Position numbers and translations under genes: made by a program. Source: Icerya purchasi (lineage: Eukaryota > Arthropoda > Insecta > Hemiptera > Monophlebidae). From it: DNA of 64,000 bases. The stretch covers positions 25,989,191 through 26,053,190 of the forward strand of contig CM077116.1 of the NCBI GenBank assembly GCA_039619475.1, written 5' to 3'. Under the pieces are notes generated by a model. That model did not search any database. It was not told the origin of the DNA and was given only the letters and a program-made list of their open reading frames with translations. Positions 19,423 through 48,359 of the stretch are shown here, one piece after another (the stretch's first letter is position 1; every line of letters starts with the position of its first letter).

Positions 19423-22415
19423 AAATGTCCAAATCGGTCCTTAAGTCATTTGGAAAAGTAATTATATCATTATGTCCGGCATCAATAGAACGCCGATTCC
19501 CAAATTTTTAAACCCCTAAACCTTCATAGGGCTCTATAGGTCCCGATTTTGTGATTTTTAGTTTATTTTACAATATATCTTTCAGCTTTTGAACTTGGAA
19601 ATTTTTCCCATTCAAATTGTGCTGGATTCCAAGCTCTACGCAGTGGTTCTACTTTTAAAAAAATTGGGGCGAAATTCAAATTTTTATAGCGCTTAAAAAA
19701 TTTTAAAACTCGATTTCTTGAAAAACAAAATATTCTCGTATCTAAAAAAAATATTTTATTGAATTTTTTCTCTAAAAATATGTATAAATTTTTTCAGATT
19801 TTGCAAAAGTGGTGGAACGTACTCAAAAAACCTAAAAACCGCATATTTTCGATTTTTTGATCATAGTCAAGCCTTTAAGTCTTTCCTGGTAACCTACTTG
19901 ATACTCCAAATGCCATTTCTGACTTTATTCTATACTACCAAGATGATAAAACTTGTTTCTGTAGGGGCGCTTCACAGTAGAGTATTATTAAACCAATCAT
20001 TATCGAACAATCTAATTAATAAGTCTTAACGGCTTCGTGTATTAATACCGATTCTCAAGATTGATCATCATATTTCTATACATTTAGTCGATGATCGACC
20101 ACTTTTCGTCGTTTATTTGTATATCAGAAATTAATTTTAATTTCAAATCACACACTTTCACCCAGAAACATTACTATAAATCTCTTTTGATTTAGCATTA
20201 TAATAGTTTAATGGGATGTTTTTTTCCCAATCGCATTAGTTATTTTTGTGGATTTATAAAAATTTTTAAAGATATATCTACTAAATATATAGTTTTTTTT
20301 TTGGGAGGGGGTTATATGAAGACAAACCGTCAGCCATTATATAAAAATATAGTTATAGGAGCAATTATAAAAATCATGAAGCTATATATTTTGCTTGATA
20401 CTGGCGCTGTAGTCAACTTTGCGATCGCGAATGTGATCGAAACACGTACAATCAACAATTGAAACGCTCTGTCGTGTTGTGGCTAATTTTGAAAACACAA
20501 TGGATGGCAACAACGAATGATAACATTAAATGCTATATTCATACCCAAGGTGTTTCCAGACAAGATGTCCGTGCTGATTACTAACATTTGTTAATCACAG
20601 TCACCATGTCTACTACAAATGTTGGCGAAAAATGCGCAAGTTGTGGTGTATCCAAAAAAAAAAGATGGTCGGATCGAAAGAAATTGTCAGTACAGGCGAT
20701 GAAAAGCCAATACTTCCTCAGGTTGTTTTGCTAAGACAATTATAGTTGGTGATATTCTATGTAGCAGTTGCAGTGGCATTGCTCGTCTTACAAAGTCAAA
20801 ACAACGAAAACTTCAAGAAGCACAAAAGGTGGTAATAACTCCGCAATCCGAAAGTCAAGAGTCCAGTACATCTTCAGAACCACTATCATAGCCAGCTGAA
20901 AACGATCCACCTTATCAACCACCAAAAAAGAAAAAAGTTGAAAAAGAAATTATTGAGTTATCTTTTAGAAGAGTAGTTTGTACGCACAATTATTGTTTTC
21001 TGAGTGAACATAGTTCTGGATTCGTTGTGGTTCCTTTTGAAGCGCGTCAAGAAGTTTTTATTGAGAAACAAATATTTATCGGAAAGGATAATCGATACTG
21101 TCAAAATCATTTAACAAAGAAACGATTTTAACAGATGAAATAGAAAGTTTAAGAAGAGTTTCACATTCGAGTTCTGTAACGGCTGCAGATATAACTGAAT
21201 TATTTAAAAGTGTAACTTCAGATCGAGAATTACACGATAGAATCGGTTTGTCAGCAGAAAAAGCTAACAGGTCCTGCTGTGCCACGATGATTCGAGAGAT
21301 TGTGGAAGCTGTACATGGGGCTGTAGCTCAAAAACATACGTTTCTTCATCTTAGATAATCGTTGCCTAGCTGAAGCTGGTCTCTACGGTAAGATTGTTTG
21401 CTTTTTAATAAATAAATTTGGAAAACGATTAGTCTCGTCGAAGGCTTCTTCAGATGAAGAGATATTGAATTAGATTTTTTCAAAAGATAGCAAAGAAAAC
21501 AGTTTAGCTACAGAAGTGCAATCAGAAAGATGGAGCAGAAGAAGTAGTTTGTTTGAAAAATTTAAGCTTTCCGATGTGCTCGGGAAATGGATCTAGTAAA
21601 GATATTTACTGGAACTTATCAGTTGCAACAACTAATATCTTACTTAGCTGAAATGATAGATCAGAAAGTTGAAATATATTTAAGGTATTTCAAAGCATCA
21701 GTTGATATTCTCAAAATATAAGTGAGATCTAGGCACATGGAAACCACATTTTACAACTGCTACGTCCATTATAAAACCAGATACGAATACACGAAGCCGT
21801 TAAGACTTATTAATCAGATTGTTCGATAATATGGTTTTTATTGGTTTCATAATACTCGACTGTGAAGCGCCCCTACAGAAACAAGTTTTATCATCTTGGT
21901 AGTATAGAATAAAGTCAGAAATGGCATTTGGAGTATCAAGTAGGTTACCAGGAAAGACTTAAAGGCTTGACTATGATCAAAAAATCGAAAATATGCGGTT
22001 TTTAGGTTTTTTGAGTACGTTCCACCACTTTTGCAAAATCTGAAAAAATTTATACATATTTTTAGAGAAAAAATTCAATAAAATATTTTTTTTTAGATAC
22101 GAGTATATTTTGTTTTTCAAGAAATCGAGTTTTAAAATTTTTTAAGCGCTATACAAATTTGAATTTCGCCCCAATTTTTTTAAAAGTAGAACCACTGTGT
22201 AGAGCTTGGAATCCAGCACAATTTGAAGGGGAAAAATTTCCAAGCTCAAAAGCTGAAAGATATATTGCAAAATAAACTAAAAATCACAAAATCGGGACCT
22301 ATAGAGCCCTATGAGGGTTTAGGGGTTTAAAAATTTGGGAATCGGCGTTCTATTGATGCCGAACATAATGATATAATTACTTTTCCAAATGACTTAAGGA
22401 CCGATTTGGACATTT
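19423..22415 (+). mobile_element. DNA transposon with ~620-bp terminal inverted repeats
   Basis: The left arm (19423 to about 20043) and the right arm (about 21786 to 22415) are near-identical in inverse orientation, from AAATGTCCAAATCGG at the tips to GGCTTCGTGTAT at the inner edge. They differ by a few substitutions and small indels. The 1.7-kb core carries a broken plus-strand gene. Neither a clean target duplication nor the superfamily could be fixed. Long arms with this zinc-rich protein hint at a PIF/ISL2EU-like element. Confidence 0.8.
20606..21356 (+). pseudogene. Transposase-like gene remnant, Zn-binding N-terminus
   Basis: An ATG at 20606 opens GEKCASCGVSKKKRWSDRKK. A frameshift near 20730 leads to GDILCSSCSGIARLTKSK, giving a CxxC...CxxC pattern. 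After one stop, a lysine-rich segment ([10 protein letters not shown]) precedes [27 protein letters not shown] and a YCQNHL motif. Another frameshift gives ADITELFKSVTSDRELHDRI. Cys pairs followed by an 'VP..AR..VF...IF' block occur, as I recall, in N-termini of PIF/ISL2EU-like DDE transposases. Further downstream (about 21590-21750) FTGTYQLQQ...SYLAE and VRSRH are readable. The superfamily call is tentative, and the gene is broken in several places. Confidence 0.5.
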
Positions 22416-25289: not shown

Positions 25290-27240
25290 TAATTCATTTA
25301 TTATAAAATACAATTTTATAATAGTAGTATTATGGCCTGGGGATCACTTTTTCTGTACTCGCTTACCAGTGTTCCGCCGGTCATCATAAATATATTAATT
25401 GAGTACGCGACTTAACGTTAATACCTAATTATTTAAATGTTCTTCTCTTTGTTTTTCATTATTTCATTTATATATTTCATAGTTATCTGTGTGTTTTTCC
25501 GGTTGGTAAATCATTTCTGATTGATTTCTTCTATTTTATGTTTTATGCTGATTTGACTGAAGCTTGGACATCTTAAAAAGGTATGATCCAGAGTATCTAT
25601 TATGTCTTTTTTACAGTTTGTGCATGTATCTTTTTCTGTTATTTTATATTTTTTGAGGTATTATCTAAAATTTCCATGTCCTTTTAAAAACTGAGTGAGG
25701 TAGAAATTAGGTTTTAGTGTCTTATTTTTAAGTCTTTCTTCTATATTTGGAATTAATTTAAAGGTTCTTCTTCTTGTTTTTTCAGCATTATACTCCTCTT
25801 GCCAAAGGTTGTTGTATTTAATTTTTATTTCTTTTATATTTTCTTTTTTTTTGTTTTTCGGTAATGCTTGATGATTCTGTTGCTTTAATTTCATTACTTT
25901 TCTGTATCTGTGAGTCAATAGGTAGCATTCCTGCAATTACATTGGTTGCAGTGTACGATACTGTTCTATATGCAGATATAATTCCCAATAATATTTTCCG
26001 TTGCTCTTTTCTAATCTTTTTTTGTCTTCTTTTTTCATTTTGGGGTAGTAGATTGTGCTGCCATATTCTATTGTGGACCTAAATAGCGCCGAGTATATAA
26101 TTTTTCTGTCTGTAGATTTGATGCCAAAGGTATATTGTATAGAGCAGTTATTTTGCTCTAAACCTATTTGATTTTTTCTACTATATGATTGATGTGACTA
26201 GTGAAATTGAGGTTTTCATCTAATATGATGCCCAGATACTTCATTTCCTTATTTAAAGATATGTTTGAATCTTCCAGTTTGAGTTTCCTTTCTAAGCCTT
26301 CTTTTATATTTTCTTTTTTGTGTTTCCTTGTTACTAAAATGCTGTTTATTTCTCAGGATTTATTTTTAGCTCTAATTGTTTCAAAGCGTTATTTATTGCC
26401 TTAATGATGATGGTGTTAATTGGTTTGATATCTTTAACATCCTGAATCCCTGCTATTAATAGAAGATCATCTGCATAGCTTATAAGTTCCATATTATTCC
26501 CGTTAAGGTCACATATATTATGTATCTTAGCCATCGCAATGTTGAAAATAGTTGGAGATAGTGCTGACCCCTGCGGTACTCCTGCTTTTAGTGTTTTTCG
26601 ATATATTATTGTTTCATTATTATAGAATCTTATTTCTCTGTTTAGTAGAAAACTTTTAATTGTGTTTAGCAAGTCGTCTTGAATATTGTTTTTTTTAAGG
26701 CAGTTCAATATGAAGGACCATTTAATTGCATCAAAGGCTCCGCTTATATCAAAACTGATCAGTAGTGTCATTTTCATTCTATTGTGTATTTTGTTGGTTT
26801 CTATTTTTTTAATACAGGTGTCTATTGCATTTTCTGTGGATTTCTTTTTTATATAGCCGAACTGATTTCTGTGTATCATTTTTCTTGTTATGACCTGTTC
26901 TTCTAATTTAAGTCGTATTATTTTTTCGTAAACTTTTTTTAAAATAGGGCAAGAGTGCAATAGGTCTGTATGAGTTTGGCATGGTCAAATTTTTCGCTGG
27001 TTTATTTAGTAGTTTTATTTTACACGTTTTCCAGAAATAGGGGAAATAATTAAGTTCAAGATATTTATTGTAAATCGTGAATAAAATGTCTGGGTAATTT
27101 TCATGAATTATTTTTATCATTTTATTTGATGTCCCATCTGGTCTGTTTGTTTTTATGTTGTATAAATTCTTGATTATGTGATAGATTTCATATATAGTTC
27201 GATGGATAATTGAGGATCTTCACTATTCAAGTTTTTAGGA
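25290..27240 (-). mobile_element. R1-like non-LTR retrotransposon, 5'-truncated and decayed
   Basis: The order on the minus strand is a complete LINE ORF2 second half. RT fingers come first (27120-26908: YPDILFTIYNKYLELNYFP, then SYRPIALLP). The palm follows (26960-26346), with QFGYIKKKSTENAIDTCI, FDISGAFDAIKW, AGVPQGSALSPTIFNIAMA and SYADDLLLIAG. Then come thumb and linker, a C-terminal basic domain (25936-25661) and a Cys/His end (CTNCKKD...DHTFLRCPSF, about 25620-25550). The catalytic Asp residues are present, but at least one frameshift joins fingers to palm and others lie downstream. The AT-rich 3' end is near 25290. Confidence 0.75.
26346..26960 (-). pseudogene. R1-like reverse transcriptase palm domain
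   Basis: The 204-residue open segment spans RT motifs A to C. Motif A is LISFDISGAFDAI, motif B is AGVPQGSALSPTIF and motif C is SYADDLLLI, so the three catalytic aspartates are intact. The fingers overlap in another frame at 26908-27120 because of a frameshift at about 26910-26960. It would have polymerised cDNA at nicked target DNA in the living element. This is the best-preserved RT in the window outside the LTR array, which itself lacks one. Confidence 0.78.
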
Positions 27241-36600: not shown

Positions 36601-38382
36601 TAGTTGTGTATTTTAAAGAGGTCGCTGTTTGATTTTCTTTATGGAACAAGGCATTGACGCATCCAGAGGTGGGGTTACAAGGCTGCAGCCCCCCAGGGAG
36701 AATAAACGGCACTGTTAATAATCCCCAAATTTGTTATCGGCAAAATTTTTGACAGTAAAAATTAATATTTGATAAAAATATAAAATGTTTTTAAATAATA
36801 TATTTTACACAAAAATAAATATATAAATTAGTGAAGGGAGAGGTACATAGATATACAAAATAGGTTTGACCATCGCCTTTACATTTTCCTATATGATATT
36901 AAATCTCCGTACATGCTCACAAGAGGGTGTGTATTAATTTTAAAAAAATAGCTGATTTCTTAACTTATGATGGGATGTTAAGCTGTTACATTTCTTTGCT
37001 GATGCAAATGTGTTTGGATGCATCTTATATGTAATGCATTATTGACATTAACAAAAAAGATTAAATTTATTGTAGCGCCATTGCTGTATTTGTTTGTGAC
37101 CGTATCTGGAAAACAATGGATGATAACTAATAGACAATAGGAAAATTTTAACAATGGTTTACTATTGAAAACGTCTATATGCATATATTTGTTGAGTGAT
37201 AAAGTATTATTAGAAATCGATTACTTTCCATTATGAACAGTGGTATAGGCGTTTTCTTTTATCAATTTTTTTAAAAAATTACAACTAGCCCTTTCTATAA
37301 AAGAAAATGTACCATTATATGTTTATTGCTTAGTTTTTTATTTGATCAAACAACTTGTGGAAATTATATTAAGCTCTTGTAACATTTTATTTGTATATGT
37401 TGCACATTTTTTTTATATATTGCAGTAATACTTCTTCAAATATAATATCCTCTGCAGATCCATTTTTATCCATGTGCTTGTATTAAGGCGAATATAAATG
37501 TTCCTTTAAGATACAATTGAACTAGAAAAAATTTATTTACTACGAGTATTTTGTACAAGAATTATGGAATAATATGAACGTGCAAATATGGATATTGGTG
37601 TGTATACTTAGGTGTACTGCATCAGTATAACTTAATTTTAGAGTATTTGTTTTATTTGTTTTATGACATATGTAATAATATACAATATCATTTACCATTA
37701 AAACCATTTATCTGTATGGTGCATGTAACTCTTACGGCTCCTAAAATTATTGATTGTTACAGATGTTTATAATATTATTTATTTTCATGAATGATGATGT
37801 TTCAATTTTGTAGTATTATTTTTATCAAATAGTCGAATGAATAAATAGTTACATCAATATACTCCAGTAATCTCATTCTATTTCTTGGATGGGAAGCACA
37901 TACTTTTAGGGGAAAAAAAAAAAAAAATTCACATAAGTTGCTCCATGTTTCGAATGTGCCTTTTTCTGGTGTGTAGGTATTAGTACAATTAATAAACACG
38001 AGACATTTTCTTGACTTTCTCAATGAAACTATTTTCACATTGTTAATTTAAAGTGAATACAATGTGTGAAGTACAAGAAATATGCAGATGAAGCACATGC
38101 ATGGAGTAAAAAACAGTATAGACTGAAATAACCGGAATAGTGATGCAAAGTATGTTTCATGAATGACGTAAGTTTTTTTTTTTTTATTTTCTTTAAGGGA
38201 ATCATTGTAGGTTTCAAAATTCTTATTAATAAGGTTGCAGTAGTTCTATAAAATCGCAATTTACTTCTTATTTATTTATTTTAACGCTACCTGTAATTAC
38301 TCTGACAGTTGTGCCTTGAAAAAGTTTAACTTAATAAATAGTGAAAAGTTGTTTATTATACTTAAAAACATCAAATACATAC
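33672..38382. other. 4.7 kb of AT-rich DNA, no genes; left flank of the LTR array
   Basis: I found no supported gene. Three G/C-rich islets stand out: 35863-35900 (GGCGCACCCAGGATTTGTCC then GGGGGCC), 36113-36160 (TGGCGGATCCAGGTGGAGGG) and 36656-36710 (GACGCATCCAGAGGTGGGG then GCAGCCCCCCAGGG). They resemble the GC-rich ends of the MITE at 11581-11880 and may be termini of decayed non-autonomous elements. The stretch ends at ...AAATACATAC, immediately before the first LTR. Confidence 0.5.
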
Positions 38383-38416
38383 TGATACGGATTCGGTACT
38401 TGCAGCGCTATCTTTT

Positions 38417-38481
38417 AACGATGTCCGAGTTAGAAAATATTCTCTGAAATATCATTAATTCACGATCTCTCGGACATCGTT
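38417..38481 (+). repeat. 13-bp perfect inverted repeat near LTR left end
   Basis: AACGATGTCCGAG at 38417-38429 is the exact reverse complement of CTCGGACATCGTT at 38469-38481, with a 39-bp AT-rich spacer. It is repeated in every LTR (for example from 44582, 50705, 56828 and 62951). It could be a paired protein-binding site, perhaps for integrase or a regulator, or an RNA stem in U3. Confidence 0.7.
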
Positions 38482-38738
38482 CTTTTTAGCCGTCGCTTTG
38501 CCTTGTCAAGTATGCTTACTCGGCCAAAACCGAAAATCCCGTGCCTGTTCGTTCGATCAGTTGCACCGGGATGATACTGCACTAGTGTCTGTGTAGTGGT
38601 TGTGGTCGAGGGCTAAGGCAGTGACATGTGCTTGCGGCGAAAGCGCGCATCCGAACAGTGTGGCGAATGACATTGAGCGAGCGGAGATTTTTAATGTATC
38701 CCGCCAAAAGTCAGGCAGGGCAGTAAGTGCGGTGATCG

Positions 38739-38770
38739 ACGCAGAAGTATTCTTCTAGAAACTTCTGCGT
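38739..38770 (+). promoter_or_regulatory. Hairpin with a perfect three-unit heat-shock element
   Basis: The arms ACGCAGAAGT (38739-38748) and ACTTCTGCGT (38761-38770) are perfect inverse repeats around a 12-bp loop. Within it, 38753-38765 reads TTC-TA-GAA-AC-TTC, an exact match to the alternating TTCnnGAAnnTTC heat-shock-factor site. An additional GAA (38744) and TTC (38750) lie just upstream. The site recurs at 44918, 51041, 57164 and 63287. Heat-shock-factor sites in LTRs are known to make some plant and animal retroelements stress-inducible; here this is inference from sequence. Confidence 0.55.
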
Positions 38771-39060
38771 AGCCTTTATCGCCGTAGCACGGAACACATT
38801 GTTCGTTCGCTTATATTTCTAGTCGCCGTAGTCGTAATTGATAGTTACCACGTTATTGTTTTTTGTTCGTTCATCTAGTCGATCGATACCGTTTTTTCGC
38901 GCGTTACGAAGAGCGCCATGCGGTGAAGTTAACCTTTTTTCGGATATTTTATGTGCCGCATAAAGAATTATACGTGTTTTAAAAGCCTAATGCTCGTTAT
39001 ATTTTTTTTTATCTTCATCTCCGTGTGACTGGCTTACGGAAGAGAAAGACATCGAAGGGA

Positions 39061-39237
39061 AAAGTCAGGATTTGTGACTCTAGCTGCCCGGAAGCAGGGA
39101 CTTAGAAAAGTTAAAGAATTTGTTACACTGGCGAGCCCGAACTGCTAAAGAAAAGTCAATTTGTAACACGGGCACCCGAAATCAGGGACGCAATAGTCAA
39201 TTTGTAATACTGGCGCATCCGAACTGAGGGACTCGAA
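39061..39237 (+). repeat. Four degenerate ~44-bp repeats with primer-binding-site-like cores
   Basis: Units at 39061-39104, 39107-39150, 39152-39194 and 39195-39237 share AAGTCAATTTGTAACAC, then (C/G)GGC-CCCGAA and CAGGGAC. The second core, TGGCGAGCCCGAACTGC (39129), and the fourth, TGGCGCATCCGAACTGAGGG (39211), resemble a primer-binding site for lysine tRNA (TGGCGCCCGAACAGGGAC) with small insertions. The second sits right after the proposed LTR end and is the best candidate. The same block occurs in every unit. Confidence 0.6.
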
Positions 39238-39542: not shown

Positions 39543-42236
39543 ATGGACGATAGGGATCTATCTAGAGTGGTGACAACTAGGGGAGATTATAGAAACCCCA
39601 AACCCGTCCTCGCCGATACGAGCGACGAAGAGAAGGGAGAGATAGAAGACCCGGACGGTTCAATAGCAGAAAGCTATGACCCACCCAGTCCGCAGGAAAG
39701 AGGATTTACTGATCCAGGTCCATCTTTCCTAGTAAAAAAAAAAACAACTGATACGGAAGAGAGTATACCCGACATGAGGGATATTTTAAAAATGATCGAA
39801 CATCAAAATAAAAAAATGTTCGAACATCTGGATAAAAAATCCGACGAAAATAAAAAAATGTTCGAACATCTGGATAAAAAATCCGACGAAAATAAAAAAA
39901 TGTTCGAACATCTGGATAAAAAATCCGACGAAAATAAAAAAATGTTCGAACATCTGGATAAAAAATCAGACGAATTAAGAGATGGGATGCAAAGGAGCAT
40001 TCGAGAATTTAAAGAGGATTTAACGAGAGAGATTAATAAAATTGAAAAAAAATATGAAGTAGTAAGTAATAAAGTGGAACAAGTAGAGGAAAAAAACAGA
40101 AATTTAACCTCTTATGTCAAGGAGTTGGCTGTAAAGGTGAAGAGAGTAGAGGATGTGGAAAGCAGTTCAAATGAAAAAATAGGGGGTTTGTCGTCCGCCG
40201 TGGTACGAATAAAAAAAAATTTAGAGGAAGAGAAAGAACGTTGGTCAGAGCTTGGCGAGAACGTGGAGAATCTCGAAAATAAAATGAAATCGGTAGAACA
40301 AAATGAGCTAAATTTCGTGGGATATCGATTAACTACATCGGGAGTGTCTATGCAGTCGGAAAAGATAGCGAAAATAAAAAATTTTCCTCCTCCAAACAAT
40401 CGAGATCAGGTCATGTCATTCCTCGGCATGTGCAATTTTTACTGTAAATTTATAAAGTCATATGCAGAGATTATCCAACCTATATCAGTATTAGTTAGTA
40501 ATAAGGTCCCGTTTGTCTGGGACGAGGAACATGATCGAGCGTTTCAGCAATTCAAAGATGCGTTCGCTGAACACATTAAATTACAAACTCCTGATTATAA
40601 GAAAGAATTCATTGTATGTTCTGACGCGTCCGACCGAGCGGTTGGTGGCTCGCTATCGCAATTAGACGAGCAAGGTGATCCGCGGCCGATCATGTTCGTG
40701 AGTCGGCTGCTAACAGGTGCAGAGAGAAACTACTTTACAACTGAAAAAGAGTTGTTGGCCACTATTTTCTGTTTAAAAAAGTTTCGCATAATCATTGAGG
40801 GATATCCGATAATAATAATGACTGACCATAAAAGTTTAAAGTTTTTAAAAGAATCTCGGTGGCAAAATGCACGCCTAACAAGGTGGACTCTTTATCTACA
40901 AAACTTCGATTTGAGACTGGAGTATGTTCCCGGGAAAGAAAACGTTGTCGCGGATATGCTAACACGAAATCTAGGTAATATTCCCGAGATAAACAGTGAT
41001 GTTGCGTTAATTGCCTTTTTCAACAAGTCTACTCAAAGTATAATTAAGGAATTGTTCCGTAATCTTGCAGAGGACCAGCGAGCAGATAAATCTTGGGGAT
41101 GTGTTATAAAAAATATTGAATGTATAGAGAAATTGCGCAGATTTTATCGCATACATAAGGATTTATTATTTTTCCGCAGTAGAGTAAGTGAATTGTGGCG
41201 GATATGTATACCTAGTGCACATGTCGAGGAGCTGATCTGGTTTACACATACTAAATACGCGCACCCTGGACAGCTCCGTACTTATTTGCTGATCTCCCGT
41301 ACATGTCATTTTTTAAAGATGCGAAATACGATCAATAAAGTAATTAAACGTTGTGAATTATGCAAAAAAACAAAACCATATACGGCGAAATCCATCGGTC
41401 CTTTAACAAGCTACTCCCCGCAAGGTCCACTTGACATCGTTGCGGTTGATGTTTTTGGCCCGTTGCCCATTGTAAAAGGGATGAACCAAATATTTGTACT
41501 ATATGACACTTTTTCAAAATACGTTAAGTTCTACCCAATGAAGAGGCTAACGAGTGTAAATTTAATATCGAAGGTGAATCATTTTATCAGTACAGTAGGA
41601 AAAATGAACACTATCGTTTCGGACAACGCCACAGTATTTACTAGTCAGCGCTGGTACGCCTTTTTCGAGAGTAGGGACATCGAAGTGCGGCATATAGCCG
41701 CCTATTGCCCGAAAAACAATCCGGCCGAAAGGGTCAACTTTGAATTAGGTAAGTCAATCAGGTGTTTGTGTCATAAACGTCACACCAACTGGCTGACACA
41801 TCTCGCGGGAATCGAGGCATGTTTCAATAACATCCCGAGTACTATTACCGGATATATTCCGAGTGAGGTGATTTATAGAGAGAATCATTGTCATCTCATT
41901 AGCGAAGTAATTGCGTTTCCGGAGGTGGAGGATAGACAAACTCATGAGAGTATCATAGAAACAATAAAAGCTCGATTAGAACGCCTCAATAATGCGCGCC
42001 GAAAAAAGCAGGTAGAAAAGAATAACATAAGGGAATATAACGTAGGAGATCATGTATATATAAAGAACCATGTCCTATCTAATAAGGCGAAAAAACGCAT
42101 GAGAAAATTGGAGTTATTGTACATAGGGCCTTTTGAAATCATAGACCGTATGCATAACAACGCATATTACCTAAAAGATCTTACTCGCGAAAACAATTAC
42201 GTAATACGCAATATCATCGATTTAAGACCCGCATAA
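39543..42236 (+). CDS. Gag-like coiled-coil / RNase H / integrase fusion protein, RT catalytic domain absent (unit 1)
   Basis: A single 897-codon frame. The open frame reaches back to a TTG at 39483, but the first ATG (AAAATGGAC) is 39543. Residues 1-80 are acidic and disordered-looking. Residues 80-255 form a charged coiled coil with four perfect 14-residue repeats (89-144). At about residue 257 the sequence switches to FVGYRLTTSGVSMQSEKIAK, then FLGMCNFYCKFI, the end of a Ty3/gypsy RT. RNase H follows with D361, E403, D428 and D471. Integrase has H569/H574/C604/C607, catalytic D636, D694 and E729 (D-34-E, as in NP-x-ERVN-type insect elements) and a C-terminal GPF motif. Capsid, zinc knuckle, protease and the RT palm (YVDD) are missing. 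It should hydrolyse RNA in hybrids and join DNA ends, but cannot make cDNA. Confidence 0.9.
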   Translation: MDDRDLSRVVTTRGDYRNPKPVLADTSDEEKGEIEDPDGSIAESYDPPSPQERGFTDPGPSFLVKKKTTDTEESIPDMRDILKMIEHQNKKMFEHLDKKSDENKKMFEHLDKKSDENKKMFEHLDKKSDENKKMFEHLDKKSDELRDGMQRSIREFKEDLTREINKIEKKYEVVSNKVEQVEEKNRNLTSYVKELAVKVKRVEDVESSSNEKIGGLSSAVVRIKKNLEEEKERWSELGENVENLENKMKSVEQNELNFVGYRLTTSGVSMQSEKIAKIKNFPPPNNRDQVMSFLGMCNFYCKFIKSYAEIIQPISVLVSNKVPFVWDEEHDRAFQQFKDAFAEHIKLQTPDYKKEFIVCSDASDRAVGGSLSQLDEQGDPRPIMFVSRLLTGAERNYFTTEKELLATIFCLKKFRIIIEGYPIIIMTDHKSLKFLKESRWQNARLTRWTLYLQNFDLRLEYVPGKENVVADMLTRNLGNIPEINSDVALIAFFNKSTQSIIKELFRNLAEDQRADKSWGCVIKNIECIEKLRRFYRIHKDLLFFRSRVSELWRICIPSAHVEELIWFTHTKYAHPGQLRTYLLISRTCHFLKMRNTINKVIKRCELCKKTKPYTAKSIGPLTSYSPQGPLDIVAVDVFGPLPIVKGMNQIFVLYDTFSKYVKFYPMKRLTSVNLISKVNHFISTVGKMNTIVSDNATVFTSQRWYAFFESRDIEVRHIAAYCPKNNPAERVNFELGKSIRCLCHKRHTNWLTHLAGIEACFNNIPSTITGYIPSEVIYRENHCHLISEVIAFPEVEDRQTHESIIETIKARLERLNNARRKKQVEKNNIREYNVGDHVYIKNHVLSNKAKKRMRKLELLYIGPFEIIDRMHNNAYYLKDLTRENNYVIRNIIDLRPA
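39807..39974 (+). repeat. In-frame 42-bp repeat, four copies in unit 1
   Basis: Each 42-bp unit encodes NKKMFEHLDKKSDE, at 39807-39848, 39849-39890, 39891-39932 and 39933-39974. The first three are identical in DNA, and the fourth differs by TCA for TCC. Units 2-4 of the array have three copies, with the last Lys changed to Asn (HLDNKSD). The 14-residue length is two heptads, so copy-number changes keep a coiled coil in register. Confidence 0.9.
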
Positions 42237-44547
42237 AAAAAAAAAAAAAAAAAGAAAATATATATATATAAAAGTGAAAATACTTCCCTCGTAAATAAAT
42301 TTTCTAAACGAATTTTTATTTTTTTAGAATTTTCTTCCGTATAATTTTTTTTGTTATTTGCCTTGTCCTGTTTGACAATACCAATTAAGGGAGCTCGCGG
42401 TTTCGCGGAGCTATTTACGTATATCACTATCGGGAACAATCGGCGTGCTCGTCAAATATAAAGTCCTGTTAGAAAGGCGATCCTATTCATCTATAATATC
42501 TGGCGGCTGCGTAGGATTTGTAAATCCTTTAAAGGTAGTCCATGTCTTCTATAACATCTGGCCGCGACCGTGGTGCGTCTGGGTACGTGTGAATCAGTGC
42601 GACTCGGAAAGTCAAGTTTTTCCACGTTTTCACAGAGTTTTTTCTTAACATCCCTTTGTTGTGCTCTGGCGTCATAAAGTCGGTTTATTGTTCCGGGTGA
42701 TAGTCGGTGTACGGGGGGTAGTTTCCGGGGTCGCGAGATCCTAGCATGATTGGTATCTGTTGAGATCGTTTACAGGACAGATTTGGCAAACAGGGAAGTC
42801 ATTATTTATATATTCGCTAGTATTATATTCACGCATTAATGCATGTACAAGTTTGCACGGGAAGTTTTGTTTACTTGTTCCAGTTTATTTTCACTCTGTA
42901 AGTCTCGATTCTTCACGTTCAATTTAAGTTCTGCTCGCGAACATTTTACAGAATAAAATTGTATTCACATCCATGTATGAGCAAAATTGATGCCGTTAAT
43001 CATGGAGTTTGTTTATTTACATCGACTTAATCGAGGCAATGCGCATCCGATTGGTGAATGTGTACTCGACTTGTCGAATTTTCGTCCGTTAGACATTTAT
43101 TAATCTTGAGAAATAATAAAAATAACAATTAAGAGAAGAGGTATGTATCATCTGGGCATTTTGCTTCGGATAGCGGTCTTGCAGTTTTTTCCGGAAAAAA
43201 AAAAAAAAAAAAAAAAAAACTTGCTTTTCTTCCGTCATTATTGTCTAAACATCTTTGAGTCAAAGTTACTCACGGGTCATCACTCTGGATCCTATTTCCC
43301 GAGTATAAGTGAGGTGTGGGTGAGAATTAATGGAATGTCGCCATATTATTTTTAACACCTCGGCACCGTAAATCGTTCACTATATGCGGCGTAGGGAATT
43401 GTAAATTTTCGTTACGTTACGGTAAACATTTATAGTTAGTTTGTTTATATTTATTTTGGTGATTGCGGTCAATATTATGTATAGGTGAATTGTTTTGTTG
43501 AACCTCCGATGTCGCAGGCAGATCGGCGGGTAGCGGAACGTGTTAATGACGTCTTAATATAATGTATAATTTTTCAGGAATTTTCTTGTTGTGTTATTGT
43601 GCGAGTGTGAGTGCCCACGACTAGAAATGCAATTTTGCTAATTATTCAGACATTTTTTTTTTTGTTTTGTTTGTCTTGTTTTGTTGGTTTTTAATTTAAT
43701 TTCCGGTGGCATGCGCCGTGGGAAGGCATGCTAGGTAATGGTAGGAAGTTGGTTTTCATCTGATATGTAGGGGTGTCTGTCTGGGATAAGCCAATTGGGG
43801 GGTCCCATGTGTCGGACGTGGCCGCGCACCACCTCTACAATTATATACAGGGTGGCTCGGTTACACGTTCGTGCATGTTTGGTCAGGGGTGTCGAAAGGG
43901 GGGCTCTCATTTTCTCTTGTGGTAGGCCAATGGGGGTGTTTCCGCACTTCGCATGGTATCCGAGTGCACCATTTTGGGCCGTGGTGGCATAGTATTTTTT
44001 TTAGGAATTGATTTTCGGTGGCTCGGGTACATGCAAGGCTTGTGATCTTTCTGTTGTCTTAATGATGGTTATTTTGAAATTTCACCGTACACTTCAGTTT
44101 ATTGAAGATGGTCTTAGTACTTCGTTTTGATAATATGACTTGAGGTCATTATTAGCCCTATTCAAGTATCGTTTGTTATTAATAGATTTTGTTGGAGTTT
44201 CGTCCACCGTTGTAGTCATGGGCGATAATAATCTTTTTGATATTTTCTGAATTAATGTTGTTAGTAGATATTCGTTTGGTCCCTGTGAGGACATGCATAG
44301 CTCTAGTCGTGTGGAGATTCTGATTTTTTCCGCAATTTTATTTATTTATTTGTTTGTATTTGTTTAGTCGTTCCAATGCCGTTGTGCGGTATGCGTGTGG
44401 TATGTTTGAGGAATGGGTGAATCTGAACGGTAGCGTTATGTTTAGAGCTCTGTGGTTCAACACTGGATGCTCCGAATCCGTAAATTCTTTCACACCTTGG
44501 TCTTCATCCAAAAACTTCCGTTTTGGATGGAAATTGGGGTGGGGCAG
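42237..44547 (+). other. 3' non-coding region and polypurine tract of unit 1
   Basis: It begins with an A run immediately after the stop codon and has a second A run near 43196-43219. It holds only short ORFs without domain motifs (for example 42445-42648, 43143-43355, 43795-43992 and 44354-44623). Elements of this class carry env or nothing here. I see no signal peptide, furin site or transmembrane helix to support env. The last bases, GGATGGAAATTGGGGTGGGG then CAG (44525-44547), are a polypurine tract abutting the next LTR. Confidence 0.6.
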
Positions 44548-45292
44548 TGATACGGATTCGGTACTTGCAGCGCTATCTTTTAACGATGTCCGAGTTAGAA
44601 AATATTCTCTGAAATATCATTAATTCACGATCTCTCGGACATCGTTCTTTTTAGCCGTCGCTTTGCCTTGTCAAGTATGTTTACTCGGCCAAAACCGAAA
44701 ATCCCGTGCCTGTTCGTTCGATCAGTTGCACCGGGATGATACTGCACTAGTGTCTGTGTAGTGGTTGTGGTCGAGGGCTAAGGCAGTGACATGTGCTTGC
44801 GGCGAAAGCGCGCATCCGAACAGTGTGGCGAATGACATTGAGCGAGCGGAGATTTTTAATGTATCCCGCCAAAAGTCAGGCAGGGCAGTAAGTGCGGTGA
44901 TCGACGCAGAAGTATTCTTCTAGAAACTTCTGCGTAGCCTTTATCGCCGTAGCACGGAACACATTGTTCGTTCGCTTATATTTCTAGTCGCCGTAGTCGT
45001 AATTGATAGTTACCACGTTATTGTTTTTTGTTCGTTCATCTAGTCGATCGATACCGTTTTTTCGCGCGTTACGAAGAGCGCCATGCGGTGAAGTTAACCT
45101 TTTTTCGGATATTTTATGTGCCGCATAAAGAATTATACGTGTTTTAAAAGCCTAATGCTCGTTATATTTTTTTTTATCTTCATCTCCGTGTGACTGGCTT
45201 ACGGAAGAGAAAGACATCGAAGGGAAAAGTCAGGATTTGTGACTCTAGCTGCCCGGAAGCAGGGACTTAGAAAAGTTAAAGAATTTGTTACA
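44548..45292 (+). repeat. LTR 2, shared between units 1 and 2
   Basis: It serves as the 3' LTR of unit 1 and the 5' LTR of unit 2. It differs from LTR 1 at one site I noticed (TATGTTTACT versus TATGCTTACT at 38511-38520). It carries the heat-shock-element match at 44918-44930. Confidence 0.72.
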
Positions 45293-45707
45293 CTGGCGAG
45301 CCCGAACTGCTAAAGAAAAGTCAATTTGTAACACGGGCACCCGAAATCAGGGACGCAATAGTCAATTTGTAATACTGGCGCATCCGAACTGAGGGACTCG
45401 AAGTGGACCCGGAAAAGAAAAATATTCAATTTCGATAGAAGAAACACAGCGAAGGAAACAGCCAAGCTGCAACAACAGATAAGCTTTTAAAGTTTTTATT
45501 GTCTCCCCGCGGCCTACTTCTTTAGGGTGTATTATACCTATTTTGTTTACGTATTTACGTTAAATTTTTTATGAAATGTTATTATCTGACATATAAATCG
45601 TTTTTTGTTTTTTTGGTTCGTAGTGATTATCGTATTATTAATATTATTTGTCTGTAGATAAGCCCAATTACGTAATTTTATCTCGTGAATATACCCTGCC
45701 TGAGAAA

Positions 45708-48359
45708 ATGGACGATAGGGATCTATCTAGAGTGGTGACAACTAGGGGAGATTATAGAAACCCCAAACCCGTCCTCGCCGATACGAGCGACGAAGAGAAG
45801 GGAGAGATAGAAGACCCGGACGGTTCAATAGCAGAAAGCTATGACCCACCCAGTCCGCAGGAAAGAGGATTTACTGATCCAGGTCCATCTTTCCTAGTAA
45901 AAAAAAAAACAACTGATACGGAAGAGAGTATACCCGACATGAGGGATATTTTAAAAATGATCGAACATCAAAATAAAAAAATGTTCGAACATCTGGATAA
46001 AAAATCCGACGAAAATAAAAAAATGTTCGAACATCTGGATAAAAAATCCGACGAAAATAAAAAAATGTTCGAACATCTGGATAATAAATCAGACGAATTA
46101 AGAGATGGGATGCAAAGGAGCATTCGAGAATTTAAAGAGGATTTAACGAGAGAGATTAATAAAATTGAAAAAAAATATGAAGTAGTAAGTAATAAAGTGG
46201 AACAAGTAGAGGAAAAAAACAGAAATTTAACCTCTTATGTCAAGGAGTTGGCTGTAAAGGTGAAGAGAGTAGAGGATGTGGAAAGCAGTTCAAATGAAAA
46301 AATAGGGGGTTTGTCGTCCGCCGTGGTACGAATAAAAAAAAATTTAGAGGAAGAGAAAGAACGTTGGTCAGAGCTTGGCGAGAACGTGGAGAATCTCGAA
46401 AATAAAATGAAATCGGTAGAACAAAATGAGCTAAATTTCGTGGGATATCGATTAACTACATCGGGAGTGTCTATGCAGTCGGAAAAGATAGCGAAAATAA
46501 AAAATTTTCCTCCTCCAAACAATCGAGATCAGGTCATGTCATTCCTCGGCATGTGCAATTTTTACTGTAAATTTATAAAGTCATATGCAGAGATTATCCA
46601 ACCTATATCAGTATTAGTTAGTAATAAGGTCCCGTTTGTCTGGGACGAGGAACATGATCGAGCGTTTCAGCAATTCAAAGATGCGTTCGCTGAACACATT
46701 AAATTACAAACTCCTGATTATAAGAAAGAATTCATTGTATGTTCTGACGCGTCCGACCGAGCGGTTGGTGGCTCGCTATCGCAATTAGACGAGCAAGGTG
46801 ATCCGCGGCCGATCATGTTCGTGAGTCGGCTGCTAACAGGTGCAGAGAGAAACTACTTTACAACTGAAAAAGAGTTGTTGGCCACTATTTTCTGTTTAAA
46901 AAAGTTTCGCATAATCATTGAGGGATATCCGATAATAATAATGACTGACCATAAAAGTTTAAAGTTTTTAAAAGAATCTCGGTGGCAAAATGCACGCCTA
47001 ACAAGGTGGACTCTTTATCTACAAAACTTCGATTTGAGACTGGAGTATGTTCCCGGGAAAGAAAACGTTGTCGCGGATATGCTAACACGAAATCTAGGTA
47101 ATATTCCCGAGATAAACAGTGATGTTGCGTTAATTGCCTTTTTCAACAAGTCTACTCAAAGTATAATTAAGGAATTGTTCCGTAATCTTGCAGAGGACCA
47201 GCGAGCAGATAAATCTTGGGGATGTGTTATAAAAAATATTGAATGTATAGAGAAATTGCGCAGATTTTATCGCATACATAAGGATTTATTATTTTTCCGC
47301 AGTAGAGTAAGTGAATTGTGGCGGATATGTATACCTAGTGCACATGTCGAGGAGCTGATCTGGTTTACACATACTAAATACGCGCACCCTGGACAGCTCC
47401 GTACTTATTTGCTGATCTCCCGTACATGTCATTTTTTAAAGATGCGAAATACGATCAATAAAGTAATTAAACGTTGTGAATTATGCAAAAAAACAAAACC
47501 ATATACGGCGAAATCCATCGGTCCTTTAACAAGCTACTCCCCGCAAGGTCCACTTGACATCGTTGCGGTTGATGTTTTTGGCCCGTTGCCCATTGTAAAA
47601 GGGATGAACCAAATATTTGTACTATATGACACTTTTTCAAAATACGTTAAGTTCTACCCAATGAAGAGGCTAACGAGTGTAAATTTAATATCGAAGGTGA
47701 ATCATTTTATCAGTACAGTAGGAAAAATGAACACTATCGTTTCGGACAACGCCACAGTATTTACTAGTCAGCGCTGGTACGCCTTTTTCGAGAGTAGGGA
47801 CATCGAAGTGCGGCATATAGCCGCCTATTGCCCGAAAAACAATCCGGCCGAAAGGGTCAACTTTGAATTAGGTAAGTCAATCAGGTGTTTGTGTCATAAA
47901 CGTCACACCAACTGGCTGACACATCTCGCGGGAATCGAGGCATGTTTCAATAACATCCCGAGTACTATTACTGGATATATTCCGAGTGAGGTGATTTATA
48001 GAGAGAATCATTGTCATCTCATTAGCGAAGTAATTGCGTTTCCGGAGGTGGAGGATAGACAAACTCATGAGAGTATCATAGAAACAATAAAAGCTCGATT
48101 AGAACGCCTCAATAATGCGCGCCGAAAAAAGCAGGTAGAAAAGAATAACATAAGGGAATATAACGTAGGAGATCATGTATATATAAAGAACCATGTCCTA
48201 TCTAATAAGGCGAAAAAACGCATGAGAAAATTGGAGTTATTGTACATAGGGCCTTTTGAAATCATAGACCGTATGCATAACAACGCATATTACCTAAAAG
48301 ATCTTACTCGCGAAAACAATTACGTAATACGCAATATCATCGATTTAAGACCCGCATAA
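45708..48359 (+). CDS. Coiled-coil / RNase H / integrase fusion protein (unit 2)
   Basis: 883 codons from the ATG (903 from the TTG at 45648). It is identical in protein to unit 1 except for one fewer 14-residue repeat (45972-46097 has three) and Lys to Asn in the last repeat. All RNase H and integrase catalytic residues are kept and there is no frameshift or stop, unlike every LINE in the window. This implies recent spread or selection on the protein. The TAA stop runs directly into a homopolymer A tract. Confidence 0.9.
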   Translation: MDDRDLSRVVTTRGDYRNPKPVLADTSDEEKGEIEDPDGSIAESYDPPSPQERGFTDPGPSFLVKKKTTDTEESIPDMRDILKMIEHQNKKMFEHLDKKSDENKKMFEHLDKKSDENKKMFEHLDNKSDELRDGMQRSIREFKEDLTREINKIEKKYEVVSNKVEQVEEKNRNLTSYVKELAVKVKRVEDVESSSNEKIGGLSSAVVRIKKNLEEEKERWSELGENVENLENKMKSVEQNELNFVGYRLTTSGVSMQSEKIAKIKNFPPPNNRDQVMSFLGMCNFYCKFIKSYAEIIQPISVLVSNKVPFVWDEEHDRAFQQFKDAFAEHIKLQTPDYKKEFIVCSDASDRAVGGSLSQLDEQGDPRPIMFVSRLLTGAERNYFTTEKELLATIFCLKKFRIIIEGYPIIIMTDHKSLKFLKESRWQNARLTRWTLYLQNFDLRLEYVPGKENVVADMLTRNLGNIPEINSDVALIAFFNKSTQSIIKELFRNLAEDQRADKSWGCVIKNIECIEKLRRFYRIHKDLLFFRSRVSELWRICIPSAHVEELIWFTHTKYAHPGQLRTYLLISRTCHFLKMRNTINKVIKRCELCKKTKPYTAKSIGPLTSYSPQGPLDIVAVDVFGPLPIVKGMNQIFVLYDTFSKYVKFYPMKRLTSVNLISKVNHFISTVGKMNTIVSDNATVFTSQRWYAFFESRDIEVRHIAAYCPKNNPAERVNFELGKSIRCLCHKRHTNWLTHLAGIEACFNNIPSTITGYIPSEVIYRENHCHLISEVIAFPEVEDRQTHESIIETIKARLERLNNARRKKQVEKNNIREYNVGDHVYIKNHVLSNKAKKRMRKLELLYIGPFEIIDRMHNNAYYLKDLTRENNYVIRNIIDLRPA

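What the first reader, a model, noticed from the sequence alone, without database searches (positions are those of the whole stretch)
39543..42236. Ty3/gypsy-derived protein that lost RT, protease and capsid but keeps RNase H and integrase in one clean frame
Seen: the coiled-coil region runs directly into the 'FVGY...G...FLG..N.Y.KFI' tail of RT at about residue 257, with no YVDD, no DTG/DSG protease and no zinc knuckle upstream. RNase H (D361, E403, D428, D471) and integrase (HHCC, D636, D694, E729) are complete. Known non-autonomous LTR elements usually lose all of pol or keep gag alone. An in-frame fusion that keeps integrase and is the unit being amplified is unusual, and could be a trans-mobilised element, a dominant-interfering element, or an integrase-driven DNA mover.
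Basis: partly seen in the sequence, partly recalled or inferred. Interest (0 to 1): 0.88.

Follow-up and report, generated by a model that had tools for sequence, protein, structure and literature searches.

The report
RT-less retrotransposon mobilised by helpers
A jumping gene of what appears to be a scale insect lost its copying enzyme and shell protein in one deletion, yet has spread recently and outnumbers its complete relatives, most likely by borrowing their machinery.

Summary
The ORF at 39543-42236 joins a coiled coil to the RT thumb, RNase H and a complete integrase; no capsid, protease or RT was found elsewhere in the unit. It belongs to a Ty3/gypsy-type LTR element in a genome whose size and scaffold N50 match Icerya purchasi. 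The window holds four units of a seven-unit LTR-sharing tandem array inside one 4-bp target duplication.

Four full-length relatives exist in the same genome. Against F1 the deletion is 2654 bp, between a 10/11-matching direct repeat. Gag and pol overlap in a -1 arrangement, so losing 2654 bp (2 mod 3) fuses the frames; that explains the clean ORF. I found 26 dispersed loci with the junction plus the array, against four RT-bearing copies. Target duplications and near-identical LTRs show recent retrotransposition. Sub-lineages with broken integrase also multiplied, and haplotypes are mosaics sharing alleles with full-length copies. This is best read as trans-mobilisation of a non-autonomous element.

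Private ORF mutations look neutral; shared ones are depleted in amino-acid changes, so a function of the fusion protein during spread is not excluded. A full-length Gag carries a domain resembling Oskar's OSK domain.

The parts
38379..38382 (.). Left target-site duplication ATAC of the whole array (right copy follows the last LTR outside the window, in L066)
38383..39209 (+). LTR of unit 1, 827 nt, TGATACGG...TTTGTAATA; further LTRs start at 44548, 50671, 56794 and 62917
   Evidence: LTR starts; LTR end from the right ends of dispersed copies
39210..39226 (+). PBS-like sequence directly after the LTR; the primer tRNA was not identified
   Evidence: sequence after the LTR end; naming it a PBS is inference
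39543..42236 (+). Unit 1 fusion ORF, 897 aa: Gag coiled coil - RT thumb - RNase H - integrase
39805..39974 (+). 42-nt (14-codon) tandem repeats in the coiled coil, 4 copies in unit 1 and 3 in units 2-4 of the window
40302..40312 (+). Deletion junction AATGAGCTAAA; 2654 bp present in full-length copy F1 are missing here
42237..44547 (+). 3' region without recognised coding domain, ending in a polypurine tract directly before the next LTR
45648..48359 (+). Unit 2 ORF (903 aa from TTG as listed, 883 aa from the ATG)
   Evidence: L017
51771..54482 (+). Unit 3 ORF
   Evidence: L014
57894..60605 (+). Unit 4 ORF; the array runs on past the window to seven units
   Evidence: L016

Best explanation
A non-autonomous Ty3/gypsy-type LTR retrotransposon. 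One internal deletion of 2654 bp, from the end of the Gag coiled coil to the RT palm/thumb border, removed capsid, an OSK-like Gag domain, protease and the RT fingers and palm (shown against F1). The short direct repeat at its edges suggests template switching by a reverse transcriptase (inferred). The length is 2 mod 3 and gag and pol overlap in a -1 arrangement, so the two frames became one ORF (shown). The RNA keeps LTRs, PBS-like site, leader, gag start and PPT, so it is probably packaged and copied by proteins of full-length relatives and inserted at ATAT-like sites with 4-bp duplications (duplications shown; supply in trans inferred from the missing RT, the amplified integrase-broken lineages and the mosaics). 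In the window one such insertion grew to seven tandem units, most simply by unequal exchange between LTRs, units 2-7 descending from one unit (single duplication and shared derived base shown; mechanism inferred).
For: Junction and 2654-bp difference against F1, same spacing in F3 and F4, one base more in F2; missing piece encodes capsid-like, OSK-like, protease and RVT_1 domains. 26 dispersed loci cross the junction; no indel at the junction in the 23 whose ORFs were aligned. RT query: exactly four complete copies at 99% or more among 40 scored of 128 candidates. 4-bp duplication at one fixed offset in 28 of 30 copies with a readable LTR end, 32 looked at. LTR pairs differ at 0-6 of 800 positions, 0 in 12 of 26. 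65-nt integrase deletion shared by five loci, 512-nt deletion shared by two and the same break in three more. Four-gamete pairs 150 of 378, at least nine recombinations; alleles shared with full-length copies. Array inside one ATAC duplication; LTR position 133 T in units 2-7, C in unit 1 and all 23 dispersed copies.
Against: No transcript, particle or mobilisation data. Shared ORF changes are depleted in nonsynonymous ones (10 N: 18 S, p 8.6e-5), and those not seen in F1-F4 too (8 N: 10 S, p 0.017), which a pure passenger needs recombination with full-length donors to explain; some donors would have to be lost or unsampled. One search scored only 40 of 182 candidates, so copy numbers are lower bounds. 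Many duplications lie in (AT)n, where a 4-bp match is weak evidence. X1 and F2 had no readable LTR end, L023 and L025 no duplication.
Confidence: 0.87

Rival explanations
1. Functional fusion protein: the deletion created a coil-thumb-RNase H-integrase protein that joins Gag particles through the coiled coil, brings extra integrase and RNase H or poisons the full-length element, and is kept by selection while the element spreads.
For: Catalytic residues complete; frame intact in 10 of 23 dispersed copies and 7 of 7 array units; shared changes depleted in N (10:18, p 8.6e-5; 8:10 not in F1-F4, p 0.017); shared nonsynonymous density 0.5% against 3.4% synonymous and 1.2-2.6% non-coding.
Against: Lineages with 65-nt and 512-nt integrase deletions multiplied; 13 of 23 dispersed copies carry frameshifts; recombination with full-length copies can import selected segments; youth alone keeps frames open. 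No expression data.
Confidence: 0.18
2. Integrase-driven DNA mover: the retained integrase moves the element or its circles as DNA without reverse transcription.
For: Integrase is complete and 4-bp duplications show integrase-type insertion.
Against: The element has LTRs, PBS-like site and PPT, LTR pairs within a copy are nearly identical, copies recombine with RT-bearing relatives, and integrase-broken lineages spread.
Confidence: 0.02
3. Local DNA amplification only: the deleted element was multiplied as a tandem satellite and never moved after the deletion; or the array is an assembly artefact.
For: Seven near-identical units in tandem at one site.
Against: 26 dispersed loci on two contigs with differing flanks and private changes. 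The units differ from each other; the matching published assembly is from HiFi reads at mean depth 31 (PMC11183206, passages). Exact unit number remains unchecked by reads.
Confidence: 0.02

Closest known systems
Non-autonomous/autonomous LTR pairs such as Dasheng and RIRE2 in rice (title seen in the reference list of PMC5491270; rest recalled)
   Same: A defective LTR element spreads with a complete partner in the same genome that shares its terminal sequences.
   Different: As recalled, Dasheng keeps no pol; here RNase H and integrase remain in one frame with the Gag coil, and the parent is nearly identical outside the deletion.
TR-GAG, LARD and TRIM elements (passages of PMC5818461, and PMC3532108)
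   Same: Non-autonomous LTR elements that keep PBS and PPT and are thought to move in trans.
   Different: LARD and TRIM lack coding regions and TR-GAG lacks POL; this element lacks most of gag and RT but keeps the end of pol.
Non-autonomous pararetrovirus eRTBVL2 with partner eRTBVL (passages of PMC5491270)
   Same: Defective partner kept similar to its helper by recombination between them.
   Different: Plant pararetrovirus, similarity confined to non-coding regulatory regions; here coding segments recombine too.
Full-length gag-pol elements of aphids and others, P0002 (Aphis craccivora) and P0003
   Same: 36% and 34% identity over the RT thumb to integrase tail; they carry a helical-looking stretch before the capsid region (by eye).
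   Different: They are complete (RVT_1 and protease motif present) and lie in other genomes; the capsid-to-protease part is N-rich instead of OSK-like.
Ty3 of yeast
   Same: Best-scoring solved relative of the RT thumb-RNase H-integrase stretch by sequence (7q5b, residues 230-886).
   Different: Distant (fold match 21% identity); Ty3 is autonomous and the 7q5b structure shows it at a tRNA gene.

Membership tests
Ty3/gypsy LTR retrotransposon | Pol order protease-RT-RNase H-integrase in the full-length form | tested here: met
   F1 pol piece has protease then RVT_1 (protease below cut-off), followed by the RNase H-integrase piece with no indel against the window
Ty3/gypsy LTR retrotransposon | Direct LTRs with PPT before the 3' LTR and PBS after the 5' LTR | tested here: met
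   the PBS is PBS-like only, tRNA not identified; LTR starts TG but ends TA, not CA
Ty3/gypsy LTR retrotransposon | Target-site duplication of fixed length | tested here: met
   4 bp in 28 of 30 readable copies
Non-autonomous LTR retrotransposon (general) | Lacks genes essential for movement but is dispersed, with a complete relative in the genome | tested here: met
Non-autonomous LTR retrotransposon (general) | Mobilised by proteins supplied in trans | not testable with these tools
   Inferred from mosaics and integrase-broken lineages; no mobilisation data
LARD / TRIM | No coding capacity | tested here: not met
   897-aa ORF, open in 10 of 23 dispersed copies and 7 of 7 array units
TR-GAG | Keeps gag, lacks pol | tested here: not met
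   Capsid region deleted, RNase H and integrase kept
Integrase-bearing DNA transposon (Ginger type, recalled) | Terminal inverted repeats and no LTRs | tested here: not met
   Direct LTRs at both ends of the copies

The most novel reading that the evidence does not exclude
The deletion gave birth to a new protein: Gag's coiled coil fused to RT thumb, RNase H and integrase. It enters particles made by full-length relatives, raises the success of its own RNA or taxes the parent, and is kept by selection during spread. The element would then be a satellite that brings its own integrase, not a passive passenger.
Probability: 0.2. Interest if true: 0.78.

Novelty: new variant of a known kind. Interest (0 to 1): 0.52.

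Why it matters
It is a natural case of an animal LTR element that lost capsid, protease and RT in one mapped event and then overtook its parent, with parent copies, junction, nested deletions and recombinants all preserved in one genome. It makes directly testable whether a deletion-made Gag-integrase fusion acts as passenger, helper or inhibitor. It also shows how a deletion can turn an overlapping gag/pol pair into one open frame by arithmetic alone, a caution against reading clean fused frames as a sign of selection.

Tried and rejected
A protein search with the coiled-coil half gave no match at E up to 10, so its Gag origin rests on the full-length copies. Viral contigs and plasmids held no relative. 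My first LTR end (745 nt, 39127) was wrong; right ends of copies moved it to 827 nt. Rfam and tRNA scans of the window were empty. The structure model has mean pLDDT 65.3 and pTM 0.35 with no confidence in the coil; the Foldseek matches to foamy virus and Ty3 integrases have rmsd above 20 over their length and add little. A tree was not built because recombination makes one tree misleading. A census with the junction alone did not complete, nor a genome census of the OSK domain. Rows dropped before counting: the N/S counts leave out 44 repeat codons (79-122), array units 2-7 and X1-X4; the alignment used 12 of 20 relatives. Literature searches on tandem LTR arrays gave nothing I used beyond passages of PMC7004042. 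A dominant-interfering role could be neither supported nor excluded.

Full report
WHAT IS IN THE WINDOW. The reported frame 39543-42236 is open for 897 aa. Pfam finds RNase H (PF17917, PF17919), the integrase zinc-binding domain, the integrase core (31.4 bits, cut-off 32.6) and an SH3-like tail, and lists nothing for RT, protease, capsid or zinc knuckle. In an alignment with 12 of the 20 relatives found, the catalytic and zinc-binding residues are invariant and E729 nearly so. Against the window, the homology of 16 of 20 full-length or partial relatives starts at 40278-40314 in unit 1, and no other part of the unit matches them at tblastn E 0.01. Ten ORFs of the 2.3 kb after the stop gave no Pfam match except two weak ones in one ORF.

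THE UNIT AND THE ARRAY. The window holds four such ORFs at a period of 6123 nt, the first step being 6165 because unit 1 carries one more 42-nt repeat in its coiled coil. Apart from that indel, unit 3 differs from unit 1 at two positions, from unit 2 at two and from unit 4 at one. Each unit starts with TGATACGG after a polypurine tract, except the first, which starts after host DNA. The right ends of other copies show that the LTR is 827 nt long (38383-39209), followed by a PBS-like sequence. The genome search places seven units in a row, matches from C2:26028673 to 26068187. The array begins after ATAC and ends before ATAC, one 4-bp target duplication around all units. Units 2-7 have T at LTR position 133, where unit 1 and all 23 dispersed copies compared have C, so they descend from one unit. 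This fits growth of one insertion by unequal exchange between LTRs; insertion of a ready-made concatemer is not excluded.

HOST. The genome has 1,103,370,081 bases with contigs of 601,656,059 and 497,304,701. The published Icerya purchasi assembly has 1,103.38 Mb, scaffold N50 601.66 Mb and two chromosomes, from HiFi reads at mean depth 31 assembled with Hifiasm (PMC11183206, passages seen). The identification rests on these numbers.

THE DELETION. A search with the ORF DNA gave 52 matches, 40 of 182 candidates being scored. Four places (F1-F4) match from the junction onward; F1 also has its N-terminal part 2.6 kb upstream, and the upstream pieces of all four carry the missing part. In F1 the left edge reads AATGAGTTAAA and the right edge AATGAGCTAAA; the window has AATGAGCTAAA at 40302-40312, so the switch lies in AATGAG, and 2654 bp are missing. 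F3 and F4 have the same spacing, F2 one base more. The missing piece of F1 encodes a Ty3 capsid-like domain (29.1 bits, at its cut-off), an OSK-like domain, an aspartic protease (25.5 bits at best, below cut-off) and RVT_1 (103.6 bits). Its gag and pol open frames are 0 and 2 and overlap by 25 nt, a -1 arrangement; a run of six T in the overlap is a possible slip site (sequence; inference). Losing 2654 bp, which is 2 mod 3, puts the Gag start and the pol end into one frame, so the clean frame needs no further explanation. In the pieces read, gag and pol are open in F1, F3 and F4, while F2's gag is interrupted.

DISPERSED COPIES. Twenty-six dispersed loci cross the junction without interruption (L010, L011, L018-L038 and three places called X1-X3); a further one, X4, lacks the stretch around the junction and cannot be judged. 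In the 23 dispersed copies whose ORFs were aligned no indel lies at the junction. A search with the RT region found four complete copies at 99% or more; the next were a 90% partial match, other partial matches including a 96% fragment of 270 nt, and other families at 77% or less (40 of 128 candidates scored, best first). RT-less copies thus outnumber RT-bearing ones by at least 26 loci plus a seven-unit array to four. Of 32 insertions examined (27 dispersed RT-less, the array, F1-F4), 30 had an LTR end in the fetched piece, and 28 of these show a 4-bp duplication at one fixed offset, mostly ATAT but also ACAG, ACAT, ATAC, ATTT, ATGT, ATAA and ATAG. The exceptions are L023 (no normal end) and L025 (preceded by the polypurine tract of another unit); X1 and F2 had no readable end. 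The two LTRs of a copy differ at 0-6 of 800 positions: 30 differences in 26 copies, none in 12 of 26; X1 could not be compared.

WHO SUPPLIES THE ENZYMES. RT must come from elsewhere. Intact integrase is not needed in cis either: a 65-nt deletion with a 7-nt repeat at its edges, damaging the integrase tail, is shared by five loci (L032-L036), and a 512-nt deletion that removes E729 is shared by L037 and L038, with the same break in X1, X2 and X4. All five 65-nt loci, and L037, L038, X2 and X4, have target duplications. RT-less copies are mosaics: 150 of 378 pairs of shared sites show all four combinations, at least nine recombination events. L021 carries F3/F4 alleles at ORF positions 414, 1220, 1407, 2049, 2070 and 2115. 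Template switching between co-packaged RNAs is the usual source of such mosaics in retroviruses and LTR elements (recalled); gene conversion between genomic copies is not excluded.

IS THE ORF USED? Ten of 23 dispersed copies and 7 of 7 array units have no frameshift or stop; 13 of 23 are damaged. Changes private to one copy are 66 N: 27 S against 2.52: 1 expected from their own spectrum (p = 0.91), so the ORF is not conserved after insertion. Changes shared by two or more copies are 10 N: 18 S (p = 8.6e-5). Those not found in F1-F4 are 8 N: 10 S (p = 0.017), two of the eight lying in one codon; F1's coil and a stretch of all four (ORF about 760-850) were not in those rows. Shared nonsynonymous density is 0.5% against 3.4% synonymous and 1.2-2.6% in LTR, leader and 3' non-coding DNA. 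Either the segment is refreshed from full-length copies, where pol is selected, or the fusion protein itself is under selection while it spreads. Recombination is shown and loss of integrase is tolerated, so I prefer the first and keep the second as the novel case. The counts come from related copies and are not independent events.

NOVELTY. Papers seen as passages describe defective LTR elements without coding regions (LARD, TRIM) or without pol (TR-GAG) (PMC5818461; PMC3532108), and a defective pararetrovirus kept similar to its partner by recombination (PMC5491270). Searches for a case keeping RNase H and integrase without RT listed none that I recognised from titles and abstract starts; most subscription papers are not in that library. 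I rate it a new variant of a known kind.

Noticed in passing
L071:748-1395 (Gag tail of full-length relative F1): Pfam OSK domain (PF17182, of the Oskar protein) at 26.1 bits, E 5.8e-6, just under its cut-off of 27, where Gag usually has its nucleocapsid; no solved structure matched by sequence. An Oskar-like fold in a retrotransposon Gag would be worth a structure.
   Followed up: partly
target sites of L010-L038, X2-X4, F1, F3, F4: Insertions prefer ATAT-like sites, often inside (AT)n runs, with 4-bp duplications; similar preference is recalled for Drosophila 297 and 17.6.
   Followed up: partly
   Followed up: partly
39805-39974 and the same place in dispersed copies: The 14-codon coil repeat varies in number between copies, mostly by multiples of 6 nt (18, 24, 42, 66, 84) that keep the frame.
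   Followed up: partly
L011 and L037, LTR ends: Both LTRs seem to have a longer end with a repeated stretch (extra partial match).
   Followed up: no
19423-22415: Large inverted repeats, 347 nt (95%) and 254 nt (99% complementary), around a 1.8-kb centre.
   Followed up: no
26346-26984 (-): RVT_1-bearing open frame, probably a non-LTR retrotransposon; not related to this element.
   Followed up: partly
43195-43219 and just after the stop at 42236: A25 run and an A-run after the stop codon in the 3' region; possible scars of captured polyadenylated RNA.
   Followed up: no
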